This document shows positions 20,048 through 51,921 of a stretch of DNA of 64,000 nt, piece after piece. The translations under genes were made by a program, and so were the position numbers. The DNA lies in assembly GCA_965222935.1 (NCBI GenBank), contig CBDCVA010000002.1, positions 1,240,001-1,304,000 on the forward strand. The letters run 5' to 3'. The stretch's first letter is position 1, and every line of letters begins with the position of its first letter. The notes under the pieces were generated by a model, which was not told the DNA's origin, did no database searches, and saw nothing but the letters and a program-made list of their open reading frames with translations. This DNA comes from CBDCVA01 sp965222935 [NCBI: Candidatus Latescibacterota bacterium]. GTDB lineage: Bacteria; Latescibacterota; CBDCVA01.

Positions 20048-21564
20048 CTCTGCGGGATGGTGTGATCGGCTCTCTCATCGAATCCACGGGCGCGCCGCGC
20101 GCCCGGCGCCTTTCGGCGCTCCTGCGTGACGTCATCGGCGCAAAGGTTCCAGAGGCCGATCCCTTGATCCTGGGCCTTGAAGCCGACTCGGGCCGTGTGG
20201 AGCCTGGGGCCGCTTTCGTCGCCATCCATGGGACGCGGCTGGACGGTCACGCGTTCGTTCCCGAGGCGGTTGGGCGCGGTGCCCGCGCGGTCGTCGTCGA
20301 ACGGGAGGTCCAGGCTGATGGTGCGGTCCTCGTCCAGGCGGCGGATACGCGACAGGCGCTGGCCGCCATGGCGAGCGCGTGGTACGGCCACCCCGCGTCG
20401 CACCTTTTGATGATCGGGGTGACGGGGACGAACGGGAAGACCACGGTGTGCCACCTGATCCGGGCGATCCTTGCACAGGCGGGCGAGCCGACAGCGCTTC
20501 TGGGGAACGTCCGCAACATCGTCGCGGGGCATGAGCTGATGCCAACACTGACGACCCCCGACGCTCTCACTCTCCACGGGTTCCTCGCGCGCGCTGGCGA
20601 GGGCGGCGACCGGGCCTGTGTCATGGAGGTGACCTCCCACGCCCTGGCGCTGGGGCGCGTGTGGGGCGTGCCCTATCGCGTAGCGGTTTTCACCAATCTC
20701 AGCCAGGACCATCTTGACTTCCACGGCGACCTGGACGCCTACCTTGAAACTAAGTGTGCACTCTTCCGGAGCTTGCCCGATGCACCTGGGACGTGGGCAG
20801 TGGTCAACGCGGATGACCCCCGCGGCAGGACCGTCGCGGCGGCGAGCTCGGCACCCGTGCTCGCGTACGGCCAAAGCGCCCAGGCCGAGGTGCGCGCGGA
20901 GAGCGTGACGATGCAGCCGGATGGCGCAGCGATGACGCTCCACCTTCGGGGGAGCGCCCGGCCAGTGCGCCTTCGGCTAGTGGGCCGGTGCAACGTGCAG
21001 AACGCGCTCGCGGCATCTGCGGCGGGGATCGCATGCGGTGTCGAGCCAGAGGCTATCGTCCATGCTCTGGAGGCGTTCGAAGGCGTGCCCGGCCGCTTCG
21101 AGCGCGTAGACTGCGGTCAGCCCTTCGATGTGTGGGTCGACTACGCGCATACGCCCGACAGCCTTGCCGCGGTCCTGCACACCGGGCGGGAGATGCGGCC
21201 GAGGCGCCTGGTGAGCGTCTTCGGATGCGGCGGCGACCGCGATAAAGCCAAGAGGCCTTTCATGGGGCGGATCAGCGGCGAGCTGGCTGATCTATCGATC
21301 CTCACATCCGACAACCCTCGGAGCGAGGCGCCCGAGGCCATCATCGCCGAGATCGAGCGTGGCCTGCGCCCAGGGGTAAGCTACGAGGTCGAGGCCGATC
21401 GCAGAGCGGCGATTGCTCGCGCGCTGGCCCTCGCTCGGCGGGGCGATCTGGTCATCATCGCTGGCAAGGGTCACGAGACCTACCAGGAGATCGGCGACCG
21501 CCGCATCGCCTTCAGCGACCGAAAGGTTGTGGAGGCGCTTCTGACGGGTGAGGGTGAACCGTGA
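20044..21564 (+). CDS. murE: UDP-N-acetylmuramoyl-tripeptide synthetase MurE
   Basis: The ligase adds the third amino acid to UDP-MurNAc-L-Ala-D-Glu in the cytoplasm. Visible motifs are the P-loop GVTGTNGKTT (about residues 125-134), TTPDALTLHG, EVTSHAL, NLSQDHLDFHG, VDYAHTPDSL and DNPRSE; the last is the marker of meso-diaminopimelate-specific enzymes. The start is uncertain: TTG 20044 overlaps the previous stop (TTGA), GTG 20062 is an alternative. The gene is isolated from other mur/fts genes, unusual because murE normally sits in the division/cell-wall cluster. Confidence 0.9.
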   Translation: MTLRDGVIGSLIESTGAPRARRLSALLRDVIGAKVPEADPLILGLEADSGRVEPGAAFVAIHGTRLDGHAFVPEAVGRGARAVVVEREVQADGAVLVQAADTRQALAAMASAWYGHPASHLLMIGVTGTNGKTTVCHLIRAILAQAGEPTALLGNVRNIVAGHELMPTLTTPDALTLHGFLARAGEGGDRACVMEVTSHALALGRVWGVPYRVAVFTNLSQDHLDFHGDLDAYLETKCALFRSLPDAPGTWAVVNADDPRGRTVAAASSAPVLAYGQSAQAEVRAESVTMQPDGAAMTLHLRGSARPVRLRLVGRCNVQNALAASAAGIACGVEPEAIVHALEAFEGVPGRFERVDCGQPFDVWVDYAHTPDSLAAVLHTGREMRPRRLVSVFGCGGDRDKAKRPFMGRISGELADLSILTSDNPRSEAPEAIIAEIERGLRPGVSYEVEADRRAAIARALALARRGDLVIIAGKGHETYQEIGDRRIAFSDRKVVEALLTGEGEP

Positions 21565-21686
21565 TGGCCGAGCACCCGCTGGCCCGCGTGCGCGAACCCC
21601 AGGCTCAGGTCACCGCTGCCCGGGACCGCAAGCCACCGACACCCAAGAAAGCGACGATGTGCGCGGGGATGCGGGGTGCTGCGTGA
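21564..21686 (+). CDS. Possible 40-residue ORF coupled to murE
   Basis: ATG 21564 overlaps the murE stop (TGATG) and opens 40 codons rich in Pro, Arg, Ala and Lys. It is similar to no family I know. It may be a translated tail, the start of a deleted next gene, or chance. Confidence 0.2.
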   Translation: MAEHPLARVREPQAQVTAARDRKPPTPKKATMCAGMRGAA

Positions 21687-21886
21687 CGGATAGCGTGGTT
21701 TTGGATGGGCTACTGATGGTCAATGGGACAGATCGCGGATGGGCGTTAAGATTTCCGTTGGATATGACGCTTGCGTATTATACATTCTAGTCGAGGTGGA
21801 GGCATGGCTGGTGCCGGCCTTAGCCAAGTTGTTGGCCGTGGTCACGGAGGCGCTGAAACTCAGTGGCCTCGATAGGAGGAAGAACC

Positions 21887-22270
21887 ATGCGGCACTTCCG
21901 ATTCGGCGACGACAGGGGCTTCACCCTGATCGAGCTGATGATTGTGGTGGTCATCATCGGTATCCTGGCGGCGATCGCTATTCCGAGGTTCGGCGCAGTG
22001 TCCGAGAAAGCGACGGAGACTGAGGCGACAGAGACCGAGATGACGGGCTCCGAAATGACAGGCTCTGAGATGACGGAGACTGAAATGACGGGCTCTGAAG
22101 CGGCGGGCTCTGAAATGACAGAGACCGAGATGGCGGGCTCCGAGATGATGGAAACCGAAATGACAGGCTCCGAGATGACGGAGACTGAAATGACGGGCTC
22201 TGAAGCGGCGGGCTCTGAGATGACGGAGACCGAGATGACGGGCTCCGAGATGAAGACCATGCCCGAGTAG
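21887..22270 (+). CDS. Type IV pilin/pseudopilin N-terminus with pentapeptide repeat tract, ends at in-frame amber
   Basis: AGGAGG lies before ATG 21887. The leader RFGDDRG and the following FTLIELMIVVVIIGILAAIA are a textbook class III signal and N-terminal pilin helix, with Glu at +5 after the predicted G/F cleavage by a prepilin peptidase. Directly after IPRFGAVSEK the protein becomes 16 tandem pentapeptides of pattern [AM][TAM][EG][TS]E, then MKTMPE and TAG. The globular pilin domain is absent from this ORF; a 62-codon sequence continues in the same frame beyond the stop. The upstream gap holds a possible -10 (TATTAT at 21776) but no clear -35. Whether the product is made into a filament is unknown. 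Confidence 0.8.
   Translation: MRHFRFGDDRGFTLIELMIVVVIIGILAAIAIPRFGAVSEKATETEATETEMTGSEMTGSEMTETEMTGSEAAGSEMTETEMAGSEMMETEMTGSEMTETEMTGSEAAGSEMTETEMTGSEMKTMPE
22010..22249 (+). repeat. Tandem repeat: 16 units of 15 bp inside the pilin gene
   Basis: Units such as atgacggagactgaa, atgacgggctctgaa and gcggcgggctctgaa run without interruption. A higher-order 75-bp block (units 5-9, 22070-22144) recurs as units 12-16 (22175-22249) with about four mismatches, which points to slippage or unequal exchange. The coded tract is strongly acidic, with a Glu at least every fifth residue. Confidence 0.92.
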
Positions 22271-22462
22271 ATCTACTTGCCGGAGCGTTCATACGACGAC
22301 GAGAAGGGCGTGTACTCGACCAGTACGAGCGGCACCGGCTTCGAGGGCGACGCCAATGCCAAGTACTGGAGCTTCGCCACCTCTCAGACGAGCGACGGCG
22401 ATATGAACGACACCTGGTCGCTCACCGACACGACCCAAACGGCGATGTTCACCGACAGCTAA
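22271..22462 (+). pseudogene. In-frame continuation of the pilin gene after the amber codon
   Basis: The frame of the pilin ORF continues past TAG (22268-22270) for 63 codons to TAA (22460-22462). It reads IYLPERSYDDEKGVYSTST and later KYWSFATSQTSDGDMNDTW, with Gly, Ser, Thr, aromatic and Asp content typical of a pilin C-terminal domain. TTG 22277 could start it separately but no ribosome site precedes. It is most simply the other half of one gene broken by a stop. Confidence 0.6.
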
Positions 22463-22486
22463 ACCTCTGGGCGGGATTATGCGGTT

Positions 22487-22523
22487 GGCCGGCGGGAGAA
22501 CAGCGCCTCCCGCCGGCCTTTTT
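22487..22523 (+). terminator. Rho-independent terminator after the pilin gene
   Basis: GGCCGGCGGGAG (22487-22498) pairs perfectly with CTCCCGCCGGCC (22507-22518) across an 8-base loop and is followed by TTTTT. It ends pilin transcription before the prepilin peptidase gene. Confidence 0.92.
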
Positions 22524-22539
22524 CATCTGAGGCCTTACG

Positions 22540-23337
22540 GTGGCTTACCTCAGCGGCTCCGGGACCCCAGTTTCCTGCGGGGCGGACTGGCTATTCCTGT
22601 TTGCCCTTGGGATGACCCTCGGGAGCTTCCTGAATGTCGTCATCCACCGCCTGCCCAGAGGCGAATCGCTCATCCATCCGGGCTCGCGCTGCCCGGGGTG
22701 CAGCGCGTCGATCCGGCCCCTGGATAACATCCCCCTGATGAGCTTCCTGCTCCTGCGCGGTCGATGCCGCCGGTGCGGGACACGCATTTCGTGGCAGTAC
22801 CCCGCTGTCGAGTTCATCACGGGCGTCGTCTTCATCGCCTTCTATCTCAAGCATGGGCTGACGGCTGAGTTCGCGCAGGCGATGGCGCTCTCGTGCGTCC
22901 TGATCGCCCAAAGCGCCATTGATCTACAAACCATGCGGCTTTCGGACGGCCTCACCCTTTTGCTGATCCCCCTGGGCCTGGGCTTTGCTGTAGGTGAGGG
23001 CTGGAGCGGGCTCGGAGCCTCTCTTTTGGGCGGACTCGTGGGCGCGGGCGCGCTCGCGTCGATTGGCTTGGTGGGCGAGACGGTGCTCAAGCGGGAGGCG
23101 ATGGGCATGGGCGATATCAAGCTGGCGGGCGCCTGCGGTGCATCTTTGGGCTGGGTGGGTTCGCTGTTGAGCCTCTACCTGGCCTTTGTCTTCGGCGCGG
23201 TGGTGCTGCTACCGCTCATGGCCATCGGTCGAGTGGCCTTCGGGCGACGCGTGCCTTTCGGGCCGTTCATCTGTGCAGGGGTTCTCGTCTATCTTGCGGT
23301 GGGTGATGCGGCGCGCGAGTGGCTGGTTCGGATGTGA
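22540..23337 (+). CDS. A24-family prepilin leader peptidase / N-methyltransferase
   Basis: The 265-residue membrane enzyme (GTG start) would cleave type IV prepilins and methylate the new N-terminal Phe. The cytoplasmic zinc-type cysteine pairs are present (CPGC, CRRC), then the two aspartates of the peptidase site: QSAIDLQTM and MGMGDIKL. About seven hydrophobic segments follow the family layout. Only 17 bases separate it from the terminator of the pilin gene, its obvious substrate. Confidence 0.92.
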   Translation: MAYLSGSGTPVSCGADWLFLFALGMTLGSFLNVVIHRLPRGESLIHPGSRCPGCSASIRPLDNIPLMSFLLLRGRCRRCGTRISWQYPAVEFITGVVFIAFYLKHGLTAEFAQAMALSCVLIAQSAIDLQTMRLSDGLTLLLIPLGLGFAVGEGWSGLGASLLGGLVGAGALASIGLVGETVLKREAMGMGDIKLAGACGASLGWVGSLLSLYLAFVFGAVVLLPLMAIGRVAFGRRVPFGPFICAGVLVYLAVGDAAREWLVRM

Positions 23338-37780: not shown

Positions 37781-37855
37781 TGGAGGGGCCACCCGGATTC
37801 GAACCGGGGAATGAGGGCTTTGCAGGCCCTTGCCTTCCCACTTGGCGATGGCCCC
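37781..37855 (-). tRNA. tRNA-Cys (GCA), CCA encoded
   Basis: The acceptor stem GGGGCCA pairs with TGGCCCC followed by T and CCA. The anticodon arm AGGGC-CTGCAAA-GCCCT places GCA at 34-36, and the T-arm reads CCGG-TTCGAAT-CCGG. Length 75 including CCA. Confidence 0.95.
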
Positions 37856-37876
37856 AGGGTCATATACCCACCTGAA

Positions 37877-37905
37877 AAGCTAGAGTCCACAAGCAGGGCT
37901 GTCAA
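37877..37905 (-). promoter_or_regulatory. Promoter of tRNA-Cys
   Basis: TTGACA on the minus strand (37900-37905) is followed after 17 bases by TAGCTT (37877-37882), about 20 bases before the tRNA. Confidence 0.5.
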
Positions 37906-37910
37906 GCATA

Positions 37911-37934
37911 TCGGGGATTCGAACCCACCCCTAC
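37911..37934 (-). pseudogene. Orphan tRNA-like T-arm
   Basis: GTGGGTTCGAATCCCCG on the minus strand has the T-loop TTCGAAT between mostly G and C arms, but only three of five stem pairs form, no other tRNA arms are present upstream, and no CCA follows. It looks like the tail of a lost tRNA gene in this tRNA cluster. Confidence 0.3.
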
Positions 37935-37952
37935 AAGAGAGGAAAAGAACCC

Positions 37953-37976
37953 TCTCTCCCCGTAAGCAGGGAGAGA
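37953..37976 (-). terminator. Hairpin downstream of tRNA-Gly, also a copy of the 23-bp repeat
   Basis: TCTCTCCC pairs with GGGAGAGA around an 8-base loop; on the minus strand GGGTTCTTTTCC follows, fitting termination of the tRNA-Gly transcript. Bases 37954-37976 match 11999-12021 at 21 of 23 positions. Confidence 0.55.
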
Positions 37977-38025
37977 ATCAAAAAGCGAAAGCCGCCGGAG
38001 GCTAGCCCCGACGGCTCTCGGAACT

Positions 38026-38101
38026 TGGAGCGGGAAACGGGTTTCGAACCCGCGACCTTCACGTTGGCAACGTGACGCTCTACCAGCTGAGCTATTCCCG
38101 C
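38026..38101 (-). tRNA. tRNA-Gly (GCC), CCA encoded
   Basis: GCGGGAA pairs with TTCCCGC, then T and CCA. The anticodon loop TTGCCAA sits in a CACG/CGTG stem, giving GCC. D-arm AGCTCAGCTGGTAGAGC and T-arm CGGGTTCGAAACCCG are standard. Length 76 with CCA. Confidence 0.97.
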
Positions 38102-47462: not shown

Positions 47463-48674
47463 TCAGCCTGCGAACGCCTTCGCCGCCAGATCGGCGATAT
47501 GCCGTCCGATCGCCAGGGAGGCGGTCGCTGCGGGAGAGGGGGCATTCAGGACGTGGATCGCGCCAGGGGTCTCGACGATCCGGAAGTCGTCGACGAGGGC
47601 GCCATGACTCTCGACTGCCTGGGCGCGAACCCCCGACCCGCCCGGTGCAATATCGTCCGTGGTGACGTCCGGGACCAAGCGCTTGAGCGCCCGAACGAAG
47701 GCCGCTTTGCTGAGCGACCGGTAGAACTCGTAGATCCCCATCCGCCAGTGATGCCACGCCATACACCAGAAGCCAGGGTAGGCCAGCATCCCGGCGATCT
47801 CTCCGAGCCGGACATCGCGGTAGGCATATCCCTCCCTGGCGAAGGCGAGGACGGCGTTGGGTCCCATCTCGACCTTCCCCTGGATCGTCCGTGTGAAGTG
47901 GACCCCGAGGAAGGGGAAGGCCGGATCGGGGACGGGATAGATGAGTCCGCGAACCAGATACTGCCGCTCGGGAGTCAGGTGATAGTACTCCCCCCGGAAG
48001 GGGATGATGCGGACCCGCGTCCTCGCGCCCAGCAGCTCGGCGACGCGGTCGGCATAAAGCCCGGCGCAGTTGATCAGGGTGCGGGTCCGGATAAGTCCGC
48101 GGATCGTCTCGAGAACGAGACCTCCGTCCACCCGGACGATCCCCTCGACGCGCGCCTCGGTGAGGATCTCGCCCCCCCGCTGCCGCAGGAGCTCCGCCAT
48201 CGCCATCGCCACGGTGTTGAAATCAACGATGGCGGTGGATGGCGAGTGGATCGCCGCGAGCCCACTGGCGTGGGGCTCGATCTCCCGCAAGGGTTCGGGT
48301 CCGATCCGCTCCAGACCCGGCACACCGTTGGCCATCCCGCGTTCGTAAAGCCGCTCCAAGCGAGGCAGCTCCTCGGGGGAAATCGCAACAATCGTCTTGC
48401 CGCAGCGCTCGTACGGGACCCCGTGTTCGTCGCAGAAAGCCGTCAAGAGCTTCGCTCCCTCGACGCATAGACGTGCCTTGTACGAACCTGGCTTGTAGTA
48501 GATACCGCTGTGGATCACGCCGCTGTTATGGCTACTCTGATGGGCAGCCAGCCGCGCTTCCTTCTCCAGGACCACGAGCCGGAGCCTGGAATCACTCTCG
48601 GACAGCGATAGGGCAGTGGCAAGCCCAACGATCCCGCCGCCGATGATCGCGATGTCATATGGCCTATCGGTCAT
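47463..48674 (-). CDS. lhgO: L-2-hydroxyglutarate oxidase LhgO
   Basis: ATG 48674 gives 403 residues; the ORF extends to 48746 without a start signal. FAD-binding IIGGGIVGLATALSL, the HNSGVIHSGIYYKPGSYKA block and the late GSGVRAQAV are the hallmarks of LhgO/L2HGDH proteins. The enzyme oxidises L-2-hydroxyglutarate to 2-oxoglutarate at the membrane, feeding electrons to quinone in E. coli. Here it is alone, followed after 155 bp by the aldehyde dehydrogenase gene on the same strand. Confidence 0.9.
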   Translation of the reverse strand: MTDRPYDIAIIGGGIVGLATALSLSESDSRLRLVVLEKEARLAAHQSSHNSGVIHSGIYYKPGSYKARLCVEGAKLLTAFCDEHGVPYERCGKTIVAISPEELPRLERLYERGMANGVPGLERIGPEPLREIEPHASGLAAIHSPSTAIVDFNTVAMAMAELLRQRGGEILTEARVEGIVRVDGGLVLETIRGLIRTRTLINCAGLYADRVAELLGARTRVRIIPFRGEYYHLTPERQYLVRGLIYPVPDPAFPFLGVHFTRTIQGKVEMGPNAVLAFAREGYAYRDVRLGEIAGMLAYPGFWCMAWHHWRMGIYEFYRSLSKAAFVRALKRLVPDVTTDDIAPGGSGVRAQAVESHGALVDDFRIVETPGAIHVLNAPSPAATASLAIGRHIADLAAKAFAG

Positions 48675-49437
48675 GCGACCTACCCCCCGCACCACGCCCA
48701 AGATGCGCCCCACTATGTGCACCGTCAATGTCTCAACTAGCCGCAATGGGAGTGGGGAACGCCTGCCCAGTATCCCTTGGCCAGTTCAGGTTCGCGACGC
48801 CATCCCAGCGCGGCTGAGGAGCGTTCGAGCAGAGCGCCGACGAAAATCTCCTTGCTTATCGGCTGCAATCGACGTTTCTTTGGAATCGAGTTTAGCATGA
48901 TCGTGAGTTTTCAGCGGGTGATGCCCGCAGCACAAGGCCGAGCTCTTCTGTCAGAGCTTGGGACCTTGATGTTTATCATCGCGTCGTGTAGGGTCTTGCG
49001 GCGTGCACGCCCGGTCTGCCCGCTGCCCGCGGGTTGGGATGTGCCGTATCGCGGACCCGGCATGCGCAGAGAGTTTCCCTTCGATCGTGGTGGGCCAGGC
49101 CAGGACGCTCCACCGGAAATAAGTCCCACCACAGGCGCGCCGAGGCGCGAAACATGTGAGAAACGCGAAGCAAACGCGAGACTTTCACGACGTTCGCGCC
49201 AGCAGTCCGGTACGGCCCTTCGGCAAGCTCCGGGCTCACGACGAATCGGAATCACCCGGTTGAACGGGGTCGAAGCGTCCGTGCGCACACGAGGAAACCC
49301 GTCTACAGCGGGTAGTGCGTAGCATCACAGCAGCGCCAGCCGGCGCTGTATGGCACGATTTCATCGCAGGGGCAGCGTGGGGCCGCATTATGCGGTTAGC
49401 TGCTCCTGTTCGCTTGAGGGGGTAGCCGAGGACCGAT
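48675..49437. other. Long intergenic region (763 bp), mostly empty
   Basis: No ORF here has a ribosome site and coding look. It holds the dispersed repeat at 49217-49234 and CAGCGCC/GGCGCTG (49331-49348), a perfect 7-bp hairpin. It should carry the promoters of lhgO and of the 49438 gene. Confidence 0.45.
49217..49234. repeat. Dispersed intergenic repeat, copy 4
   Basis: CCTTCGGCAAGCTCCGGG, differing from the consensus at one base. It is in the middle of the 763-bp gap. Confidence 0.5.
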
Positions 49438-51921
49438 ATGACGGATGCGTTCGAGGCATTTTTGCCCTTCGTGATACGACCGAACCAGTATCTGGCGAAT
49501 GAGCTTTATGTTGTCACCAAGGCTCCCGAGACGGTCGGCGTGCAGGTGGCACTGGCTTTTCCCGATGCGTACGAGCGGGGGCAGGCAGCGCTTATGACGC
49601 AGACGCTCTATCACGTCCTCAACCGTCAACCCAATGTCCTGGCCGAACGCGTCTTCGCCCCGTGGGAGGATATGGAGCGGGAACTGCGGGCGCGGCGGCT
49701 CGGGCTCGTGACGCTCGAATCGCACCGTCCGCTCAACGCTTTCGACGTCATCTGGTTCACACTCCCCTCCGCGATGACGTACACGAATGTGTTCACGATG
49801 CTTGACCTCGGGGATCTGCCGCTGCGCTCGGCAGAACGAGGTCCGGAGGCGCCTCTCATCATCGCCGGCGGACCCGCAGCGAGCAACCCGGAGCCGATGG
49901 CGGCCTTTGTGGATGCCTTCGCGATCGGCGATCCTGAGGCGGTGCTCCCGCCGGTGCTGGAGGTCATCGGCTCACTGCGTGCGGACCGCACGCCACGCCA
50001 TGCCATCCTGCGCGCGCTTGCGGAGATCGATGGGGTCTACGTGCCGAGTTGTTATTTTCCGTGTGAGCGGCAGAACGGAGGCGGTTCGGTGGAGGCTCAG
50101 AATGGCTTCCCCGCCGTGGTGCGCGGGCACTACCTCGCCGAACTCGGGCCCGATCTGTACCCGGAGCGACCCATCGTCCCGACGTTGAAGACGATGCCCG
50201 ACAGGCTACCGGTCGAGGTCGCGCGTGGCGGGGCCGCCATGGGCTGTGACGTGCCAACGCCCTTGGGGCCGCGGCGCGAGCGCTCGCCCGAGGCAGTGGT
50301 GGCCCAGGCGGAGAGGAACGTGTGTGCTGGCGGCTGGGAAGAGATCGCTCTGGTGGCGCCGGCCCCCTGCACTCATGGAGCGCTAGACGACCTCGTCGTG
50401 TGCCTATCGGAGACGCTCGCGACCAAGCGCGTGGCCGTGGCGCTGCCGCCGCTCTTACCCGGTACGTTCACGCCGAGGCTCGCGGAGGCACTGGCGCGCA
50501 CACGCAAGACACCGCTGGCGCTGATGCTGCAAGCGGGGCCCGGTGCGGATCCCATAGAGGCCGATGTGGTTGTCCGTGCGGCACAGCTCGCGTTCGATCT
50601 TGTGTGGCCAGGGCTGACGCTTTATGCATCGCTGGGCAGACCGGGGGAGGACAGGGGAACCCTCGAAGGGCTGGTGCAGGTGACGCGCCGTACCGCCGAG
50701 ATAGCGCGGCGCGCAGGCGGCAAGCTGGTACACCTGGTCGTGGAGCCCTCGGTGCCGCTGCCGTGCGATGCGCTCGAGCGAGAGCCACTCGTCGCCACCG
50801 ACGAGCTCGAGAAGCGCGCCACAATGCTCAAGCGGCAGATCCGCGGACGAAACGTCCGGCTCAGGTGGCGCGGGACGGAGGCTTCGCGCGTGCATGCCCT
50901 GTTGGCACGCGGGGACCGGCGCGTCGGGGATGTCGCGCTCGCGGCCTGGCAAGACGGCGCGCGGTTCGACGGGTGGGCAACCCACTTCGAATTCTCGCGC
51001 TGGTGCGCGGCGTGGCGCACCGCCAACGTGGATCCCGAGCCCTATTGGGCAGGCCCTGGGCCGGAGGGGCCTCTGGGCTGGAGGCACATCGCCCTGGCAC
51101 CGAGCGCACCAAAGACACAGCCTAAAGGGAAAGTTCATCCGTTACAGCAAGTACTCCCGAGGGGTGAAAGCGCTCGGGATGAGCGCTATGGCCGCGGTCG
51201 GAGGCAGCGGCGTAAAACCCTTCCCGAAGAGGTGCGGACGATGGTGCGGGTGGAGTACTCGAAGGCCGGGGCGCTGCGGTTCGTCTCCCACCTCGATCTC
51301 GTACGCCTCTTCGATCGGGCGACGCGGCGGGCGGGGCTGCCCATCCGTTACTCCCGGGGACATCACCCTCACCCAGAACTGGCGTTTGGTCCCCCACTGC
51401 CGCTGGGGATCGAGGGAGAGGCGGAGTACTTCGATATGACGCTGGAGGGCGCGTTGCCTCGCGGGCTCGTCGCACATCTGGATCGAGCGCTGCCCCCCGG
51501 CCTGAAGGTGACGCGCATGAAGTTACTGTACGGGAAAGTTCGCTCGCTGGACGCGGCGATCAATCTCGCCCACTACCAGGCGCAACTCGGGGAGGACCCC
51601 GACGAACTCGAGGCCCAGATCGCAGCCTTTCGCGCGCGGTCAGTCTGTCCAGTGGTACGCACGACGGACAATGGAGCCCGCGAGATTGACGTGCGCCCCC
51701 TAGTCAGCGACCTGGAAGTGGAGCCGGCAAAGACAGAGGAAGGAACAGCCCGAGTGGATATGTGGCTCGCGGTGGGGCAACGAGGGACGGCGCGACCGGA
51801 CGATGTGCTGAGCGCAGCCTTCGGCTTGGATCGACGCGAGGCAGTAACAGTCATGGTGCGGCGCGTTGGTCTGTTCATCGAGCGCGATGGTCTGCGTGTG
51901 ACGCCTATGGATGTCGTCTAG
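49438..51921 (+). CDS. TIGR03960/TIGR03936 fusion protein: degenerate radical SAM domain plus DUF2344
   Basis: The 827-residue protein combines an N-terminal B12-binding-like/radical SAM half and a C-terminal DUF2344 half (VRVEYSKAGALRFVSHLDLVR onward, about residue 605). Homologues read RGCTRGCRFCQAG and bind a 4Fe-4S cluster; here residues 263-273 read RGGAAMGCDVP, so two of three cysteines (C-x3-C-x2-C) are missing. The rest, including PRRERSPEAVVAQAERN, aligns well. The family normally sits just upstream of RNase G, as here (51 bp). Activity as a radical SAM enzyme is therefore unlikely. Confidence 0.85.
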   Translation: MTDAFEAFLPFVIRPNQYLANELYVVTKAPETVGVQVALAFPDAYERGQAALMTQTLYHVLNRQPNVLAERVFAPWEDMERELRARRLGLVTLESHRPLNAFDVIWFTLPSAMTYTNVFTMLDLGDLPLRSAERGPEAPLIIAGGPAASNPEPMAAFVDAFAIGDPEAVLPPVLEVIGSLRADRTPRHAILRALAEIDGVYVPSCYFPCERQNGGGSVEAQNGFPAVVRGHYLAELGPDLYPERPIVPTLKTMPDRLPVEVARGGAAMGCDVPTPLGPRRERSPEAVVAQAERNVCAGGWEEIALVAPAPCTHGALDDLVVCLSETLATKRVAVALPPLLPGTFTPRLAEALARTRKTPLALMLQAGPGADPIEADVVVRAAQLAFDLVWPGLTLYASLGRPGEDRGTLEGLVQVTRRTAEIARRAGGKLVHLVVEPSVPLPCDALEREPLVATDELEKRATMLKRQIRGRNVRLRWRGTEASRVHALLARGDRRVGDVALAAWQDGARFDGWATHFEFSRWCAAWRTANVDPEPYWAGPGPEGPLGWRHIALAPSAPKTQPKGKVHPLQQVLPRGESARDERYGRGRRQRRKTLPEEVRTMVRVEYSKAGALRFVSHLDLVRLFDRATRRAGLPIRYSRGHHPHPELAFGPPLPLGIEGEAEYFDMTLEGALPRGLVAHLDRALPPGLKVTRMKLLYGKVRSLDAAINLAHYQAQLGEDPDELEAQIAAFRARSVCPVVRTTDNGAREIDVRPLVSDLEVEPAKTEEGTARVDMWLAVGQRGTARPDDVLSAAFGLDRREAVTVMVRRVGLFIERDGLRVTPMDVV

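What the first reader, a model, noticed from the sequence alone, without database searches (positions are those of the whole stretch)
21887..22462. Type IV pilin gene with 16 pentapeptide repeats and an in-frame amber stop
A canonical pilin N-terminus is followed directly by 16 tandem 15-bp units and then TAG, after which the same frame continues 63 codons into pilin-like C-terminal sequence. This can be slippage-driven variation, a broken gene, or stop read-through. A Glu-rich repeat stalk between helix and head would be a new pilin design. Adjacent prepilin peptidase and a strong terminator suggest the locus is still in use.
Basis: seen in the sequence. Interest (0 to 1): 0.75.

Follow-up and report, generated by a model that had tools for sequence, protein, structure and literature searches.

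The report
Repeat-expanded pilin gene with internal stop
A type IV pilin gene of an unidentified bacterium has gained a string of five-amino-acid repeats after its membrane helix and then a stop codon before its head region; it most likely is a recently broken, repeat-expanded pilin gene rather than a new kind of pilus.

Summary
An ORF with a good ribosome-binding site (ATG 21887) has a class III prepilin N-terminus, 15 full plus one partial in-frame 15-bp unit (22019-22258), TAG at 22268-22270, then 63 open codons in the same frame to TAA 22462 and a strong terminator (22487-22518). The repeats are far beyond chance and contain a 7-unit (105-bp) duplication. Units differ mostly silently in the coding frame, so the repeats were probably translated for some time. 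The tail still scores as coding and is predicted, at moderate confidence, as a beta sheet. TAG ends 15 of 38 hand-picked window genes, so it is an ordinary stop here. I found no clear recoding signal, no amber tRNA in the window and no good restart site for the tail. Because 15 is divisible by 3, slippage cannot switch the stop on or off. Best reading: in-frame repeat expansion in a living pilin gene, then a recent nonsense change that removed the head. A headless functional pilin, a consensus error and read-through remain possible. No relatives of the tail were found in the collections searched, and no whole genome is held, so repeat number and stop could not be compared across strains.

The parts
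21874..21879 (+). ribosome-binding site AGGAGG, 7 bases before the ATG
   Evidence: sequence
21887..22003 (+). prepilin leader and N-terminal helix (MRHFRFGDDRG/FTLIELMIVVVIIGILAAIAIPRFGAVS)
   Evidence: PF07963 E 3.6e-10; TIGR02532 E 2.3e-10; best of 21 solved sequences is Geopilin domain 1 protein, E 6.5e-11
22004..22018 (+). divergent first unit EKATE between helix codons and array
   Evidence: 11 of 15 positions fit the unit profile, as do 1.4% of other + strand 15-mers of the window, so modest evidence
22019..22258 (+). 15 full and one partial 15-bp unit, [ST]E[MA][TAM][GE]
22034..22243 (+). two 7-unit (105-bp) copies, 9 differences in 105 bases
22268..22270 (+). in-frame TAG
22271..22462 (+). 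63 codons in the same frame plus TAA; predicted beta-rich head
   Evidence: coding score +23.5 bits in frame, -59.4 and -13.4 in the other forward frames, best antisense frame 2.9; five strands, 10-residue mean pLDDT 56-75, in a read-through model
22487..22518 (+). intrinsic terminator, beginning 25 bases after the TAA
   Evidence: fold z -2.78 for 22460-22530
22540..23337 (+). prepilin peptidase (PilD-like), open over both family domains
   Evidence: PF06750 E 1.4e-34 and PF01478 E 4.9e-18

Best explanation
A small type IV pilin (or pseudopilin) gene whose codons just after the N-terminal helix were multiplied in frame by tandem duplication, in small steps and later as a 7-unit block, while the protein was still made and selected. 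A nonsense change after the array then cut off the C-terminal head. The product now predicted is a 127-residue prepilin: leader, assembly helix and an 80-residue Ser/Thr-Glu-Met-Gly repeat, without a head. It could still be cleaved by the neighbouring peptidase and inserted in the membrane but probably cannot build a normal filament, so the gene is most likely a young pseudogene. Shown: the sequence anatomy, the repeat statistics, the coding character of the tail, TAG as a normal stop. Inferred: order of events, loss of function, recency.
For: TAG ends 15 of 38 hand-picked window genes. The tail keeps coding bias (G+C at third positions 0.889 against 0.79 over the 38 genes; +23.5 bits) without a second stop, and the terminator sits just after the TAA, not the TAG. 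Among the 15 full units pN/pS is 0.38 in the coding frame against 1.57 and 0.92 in the other forward frames and 1.04, 0.59 and 1.24 in the antisense frames, which suggests that the array was translated. The units next to the array's ends still fit the unit profile in part (11 and 12 of 15), as if it grew from the gene's own codons. Of the four ATG/GTG/TTG codons in frame after the TAG none has a well-placed ribosome-binding site; GTG 22310 has only an AAGGG one base before it.
Against: No relative with the tail was found, so it is not proved that an intact head-bearing form existed. Units of one array are not independent, so pN/pS is only indicative; the two 105-bp copies differ by about 3.5 silent and 5.5 replacement changes (pS 0.158, pN 0.066), weaker support for recent constraint. 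The read-through model had no significant match in the PDB (0 of 633 matches at E 0.001 or better). The ribosome-binding site, terminator and peptidase next door show no decay beyond the TAG.
Confidence: 0.52

Rival explanations
1. Headless but functional pilin: the repeats replace the head, and the protein acts like the short helix pilins (Geobacter PilA-N), perhaps with a partner made elsewhere; the tail is residual.
For: The N-terminus matches 'Geopilin domain 1 protein' best of the 21 solved sequences found (E 6.5e-11; that this is Geobacter PilA-N is recalled). The repeats look constrained in frame. In G. sulfurreducens helix and head are reported as separate chains forming heterodimers (passages of PMC11021709); passages of PMC8844916 dispute that model.
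Against: The only prepilin N-terminus found by motif in the 64 kb is this one; head partners without that motif were not searched for. The tail has no good start site and, by eye, no hydrophobic signal at its beginning (no predictor was run). Repeats are predicted unstructured.
Confidence: 0.2
2. Consensus or assembly error, or a minor variant in a mixed population: most cells carry one open frame of 191 codons.
For: One codon decides it; the rest of the frame, including the tail, reads as a working gene. No whole genome and no reads are held for this window.
Against: None testable here; I did not look systematically for other broken frames in the window.
Confidence: 0.18
3. Programmed or suppressed amber: a fraction of ribosomes reads the TAG and makes a headed pilin with a repeat stalk, the rest a headless one.
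For: Open, coding-like tail and terminator after the TAA.
Against: TAG is a normal stop; no structure after it beyond chance (z -0.05); the 76 bases before and across it fold somewhat better than shuffles (z -2.01, 3 of 200), but that stretch is mostly repeat sequence; none of the 3 tRNAs in the window reads TAG, the rest of the genome is not held.
Confidence: 0.07
4. The repeats form a pentapeptide-repeat beta-helix (Rfr fold) attached to a pilin helix (not exclusive of the readings above).
For: PF00805 scores 21.0 and 23.0 bits, over its cut-off of 20.2, though no single stretch passes alone; the hit was absent in 9 of 9 decoys (8 reordered units, 1 shuffle); weak alignment in register with solved 'beta1' pentapeptide proteins (4yfo_A, E 1.5e-6 for the whole sequence, no single stretch significant).
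Against: AlphaFold2 gave no strands in the repeats and 10-residue mean pLDDT of 42-64. Three of the 9 decoys reached a different repeat family (Decapeptide, E 0.0094, 1.3e-4 and 6e-5, all below its cut-off), so such E-values come easily to period-5 sequence. Glu instead of Asp/Asn and Met instead of Leu/Phe stand at the usual positions (consensus recalled).
Confidence: 0.05

Closest known systems
Type IVa pilins and type II secretion pseudopilins (PF07963 / TIGR02532)
   Same: Leader, Gly-Phe cleavage site, Glu at position 5, hydrophobic helix; prepilin peptidase gene next door
   Different: 15-16 pentapeptide repeats where the helix normally runs into the head; stop codon before the head
Geobacter sulfurreducens split pilin PilA-N / PilA-C
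   Same: Closest solved N-terminus; a pilin helix and a beta-rich part separated by a stop
   Different: Here the two halves share one frame, the second has no good start site, and a repeat array lies between
Pentapeptide repeat proteins (PF00805)
   Same: Period 5 with small, polar, hydrophobic residue in the expected order; just above the Pfam cut-off
   Different: Glu-Met in place of Asp/Asn-Leu/Phe (consensus recalled); no beta-helix predicted

Membership tests
Type IV pilin-like proteins (class III prepilins) | N-terminal cleavage and methylation motif followed by a hydrophobic helix | tested here: met
   PF07963 39.4 bits (cut-off 21.2) and TIGR02532 39.8 bits (cut-off 16.3); helix 14-31 predicted
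Type IV pilin-like proteins (class III prepilins) | C-terminal globular head with antiparallel beta sheet in the same chain | tested here: inconclusive
   Absent from the 127-residue product; the 63 codons after the stop are predicted as five strands at moderate confidence, but with no family match and no significant structural match
Split pilin (PilA-N / PilA-C) | Head encoded by its own gene with its own start site | tested here: not met
   Four in-frame ATG/GTG/TTG codons after the TAG, none with a well-placed ribosome-binding site
Pentapeptide repeat proteins (PF00805) | Profile score over the cut-off | tested here: met
   21.0 and 23.0 bits against 20.2; no single stretch passes alone
Pentapeptide repeat proteins (PF00805) | Right-handed four-sided beta-helix | tested here: inconclusive
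   No strands predicted in the repeats, low confidence, single-sequence models
Phase-variable genes by repeat slippage | Change of repeat number moves the reading frame | tested here: not met
   The 15-bp unit keeps the frame and no unit contains the TAG
TAG recoding (amber reassigned to an amino acid) | TAG not used as the normal gene end | tested here: not met
   TAG ends 15 of 38 hand-picked genes

The most novel reading that the evidence does not exclude
A living pilin in which a length-variable pentapeptide stalk lifts the head off the filament core, with the amber stop read through at low rate so that headed and headless subunits are mixed in one pilus.
Probability: 0.05. Interest if true: 0.75.

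Novelty: new variant of a known kind. Interest (0 to 1): 0.3.

Why it matters
If the locus is active, it would show that the junction between pilin helix and head tolerates a long repeat spacer, or that a pilin can do without its head. If it is a young pseudogene, it is one more case of in-frame minisatellite growth in a surface protein followed by loss. Relatives would decide.

Tried and rejected
On/off phase variation: rejected, because the unit is 15 bp and no unit holds the TAG. Antisense gene: an antisense ORF 21820-22260 exists, but codon scores favour the forward frame (repeat 30.3 against 21.5 bits in the best antisense frame, N-terminus 21.6 against 6.7); rejected.

Relatives of the tail: 0 of 149 genomes in the phylum of a Neomarinimicrobiota locus (E limit 0.01); at E limit 0.05, 4 of 294 in that of a Phycisphaerae locus, 1 of 17 in that of an Aerophobetes locus and 2 of 288 in that of a Verrucomicrobia locus, with E 0.0044-0.0402 (phylum names come from the record titles). 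I looked at all 7 of these loci: none holds a prepilin motif in the roughly 3 kb fetched, so I take them as chance. No match in 72,556 plasmid records. One viral-contig match (L036) is a 23-residue stretch inside a 1633-aa ORF, taken as chance. The 127-residue product found none in viral contigs: 9 stretches matched a pattern, none was confirmed.

The phylum of the window could not be settled: the neighbour that I take for MurE (name recalled) is at most 43% identical in long matches in the 12 genomes compared, 46% in one 83-residue piece. A Foldseek search with the read-through model gave nothing significant. A sigma-54-type pattern gave 176 matches in the window against 219 expected, so it says nothing; no sigma-70-like site in 21500-22650.

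Literature (titles and abstract starts of capped listings): pilin with tandem repeat, stop codon and phase variation (15 of 70 listed), with pentapeptide repeat (11 of 11), with intragenic repeat or pilus length (10 of 11), with read-through or in-frame stop (3 of 3), with stalk or low complexity (8 of 138). I saw no such pilin there; other papers may exist. Searches on split pilins and on Latescibacteria pili (a guess at the phylum that nothing here tests) were also run.

Full report
Observation. The ORF at 21887-22270 begins with ATG, 7 bases after AGGAGG, and encodes a class III prepilin N-terminus (PF07963 E 3.6e-10; TIGR02532 E 2.3e-10). Fifteen full 15-bp units plus a partial one follow from 22019 to 22258, with a weaker unit before them at 22004. 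TAG lies at 22268-22270. The same frame runs on for 63 codons to TAA at 22460-22462. A terminator with a 12-pair stem lies at 22487-22518 and a prepilin peptidase ORF at 22540-23337. The array is not chance: it is two of the three Tandem Repeats Finder rows in the window, and no other 15-mer on the + strand outside 21851-22300 reaches a full score against the unit profile, which 14 of the 15 full units do (the profile was built from 14 of these units).

How the array grew. Two 105-bp copies (22034-22138 and 22139-22243) differ at 9 of 105 bases, so a late step was a 7-unit duplication. Units come in two kinds, with Gly-Ser or Glu-Thr at the joint. The unit before the array (EKATE, 11 of 15 profile positions; 1.4% of other 15-mers do as well) and the last one (SEMKT, 12 of 15; 0.3%) fit in part, so the array looks home-grown and not inserted (inference from modest evidence). 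Across the 15 full units pN/pS is 0.38 in the coding frame, 1.57 and 0.92 in the other forward frames, and 1.04, 0.59 and 1.24 in the antisense frames. This suggests translation and constraint during the array's history. The caveat is that units are not independent, and the younger 105-bp pair alone shows 3.5 silent and 5.5 replacement changes.

The stop. Of 38 genes picked by hand, 15 end in TAG, 17 in TGA and 6 in TAA. The 38 are 36 of the 46 ORFs of at least 260 aa, after dropping by eye 10 that overlap a better ORF, plus 2 shorter ones; they are not verified genes. TAG is thus a normal stop here. The RNA after the TAG folds like its shuffles (z -0.05); the stretch before and across it has z -2.01, 3 of 200 shuffles folding as well, but it is mostly repeat sequence. 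ARAGORN lists three tRNAs in the window, none for TAG. A change in unit number cannot alter the frame.

The tail. Its codons score +23.5 bits in frame against -59.4 and -13.4 in the other forward frames, and G+C at third positions is 0.889 (38 genes: 0.79). No family matches it in Pfam, NCBIfam or PHROGs, and a solved-structure sequence search gave only one chance-level porin match (E 0.67). AlphaFold2 on the read-through (single sequence, mean pLDDT 57.8) shows five strands in the tail, with 10-residue means of 56-75 for residues 131-190, compatible with a pilin head, but Foldseek found nothing significant in the PDB. Of the four in-frame ATG/GTG/TTG codons after the TAG none has a well-placed ribosome-binding site; GTG 22310 has an AAGGG one base before it.

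The repeats as protein. Pfam's pentapeptide family scores 21.0 and 23.0 bits against a cut-off of 20.2, no single stretch passing alone, and is absent in 9 of 9 decoys. Three of those 9 match another repeat family (E 0.0094, 1.3e-4, 6e-5), below its cut-off. Both AlphaFold2 models leave the repeats without secondary structure. A disordered spacer is therefore more likely than a beta-helix, from weak evidence.

Interpretation. The most likely history is in-frame growth of a repeat after the helix of a working pilin, followed by a recent nonsense change (0.52). A headless functional pilin resembling Geobacter PilA-N in its N-terminus (0.20), a consensus error or minor variant (0.18), and read-through (0.07) remain. 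The split pilin of Geobacter is named in passages that I saw of PMC11021709 and PMC8844916; the latter disputes the heterodimer model. Without relatives or reads these readings cannot be separated here.

Limits. No whole genome is held for the window. The tail was sought in 748 genomes of four phyla (149 + 294 + 17 + 288), none known to be the window's own. The tool itself warned that an empty answer without a positive control shows nothing. Both AlphaFold2 runs had one sequence in the alignment (one search says so; one search likewise).

Noticed in passing
window 49438-51921: Large radical-SAM/DUF2344 fusion ORF (PF19864 E 2.2e-53, PF10105 E 1.3e-46) in which the Radical_SAM domain itself scores only 18.6 bits (cut-off 29.5), matched from profile position 14 on; the usual three-cysteine cluster motif (recalled) seems by eye to be missing, although the frame is open and an RNase G-like ORF (name recalled) follows.
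   Followed up: partly
window 48232-48313: ARAGORN reports a tRNA-Ala inside an ORF on the other strand (47463-48746); Rfam finds only the other two tRNAs, so this one is probably false.
   Followed up: partly
window 37781-38101: tRNA-Cys and tRNA-Gly near each other on the minus strand, both supported by Rfam.
   Followed up: no
window 21565-21886: About 320 bases between the murE-like ORF (name recalled) and the pilin gene are overlapped by an 80-aa open frame (21548-21790) of unknown meaning and hold no sigma-70-like site.
   Followed up: no
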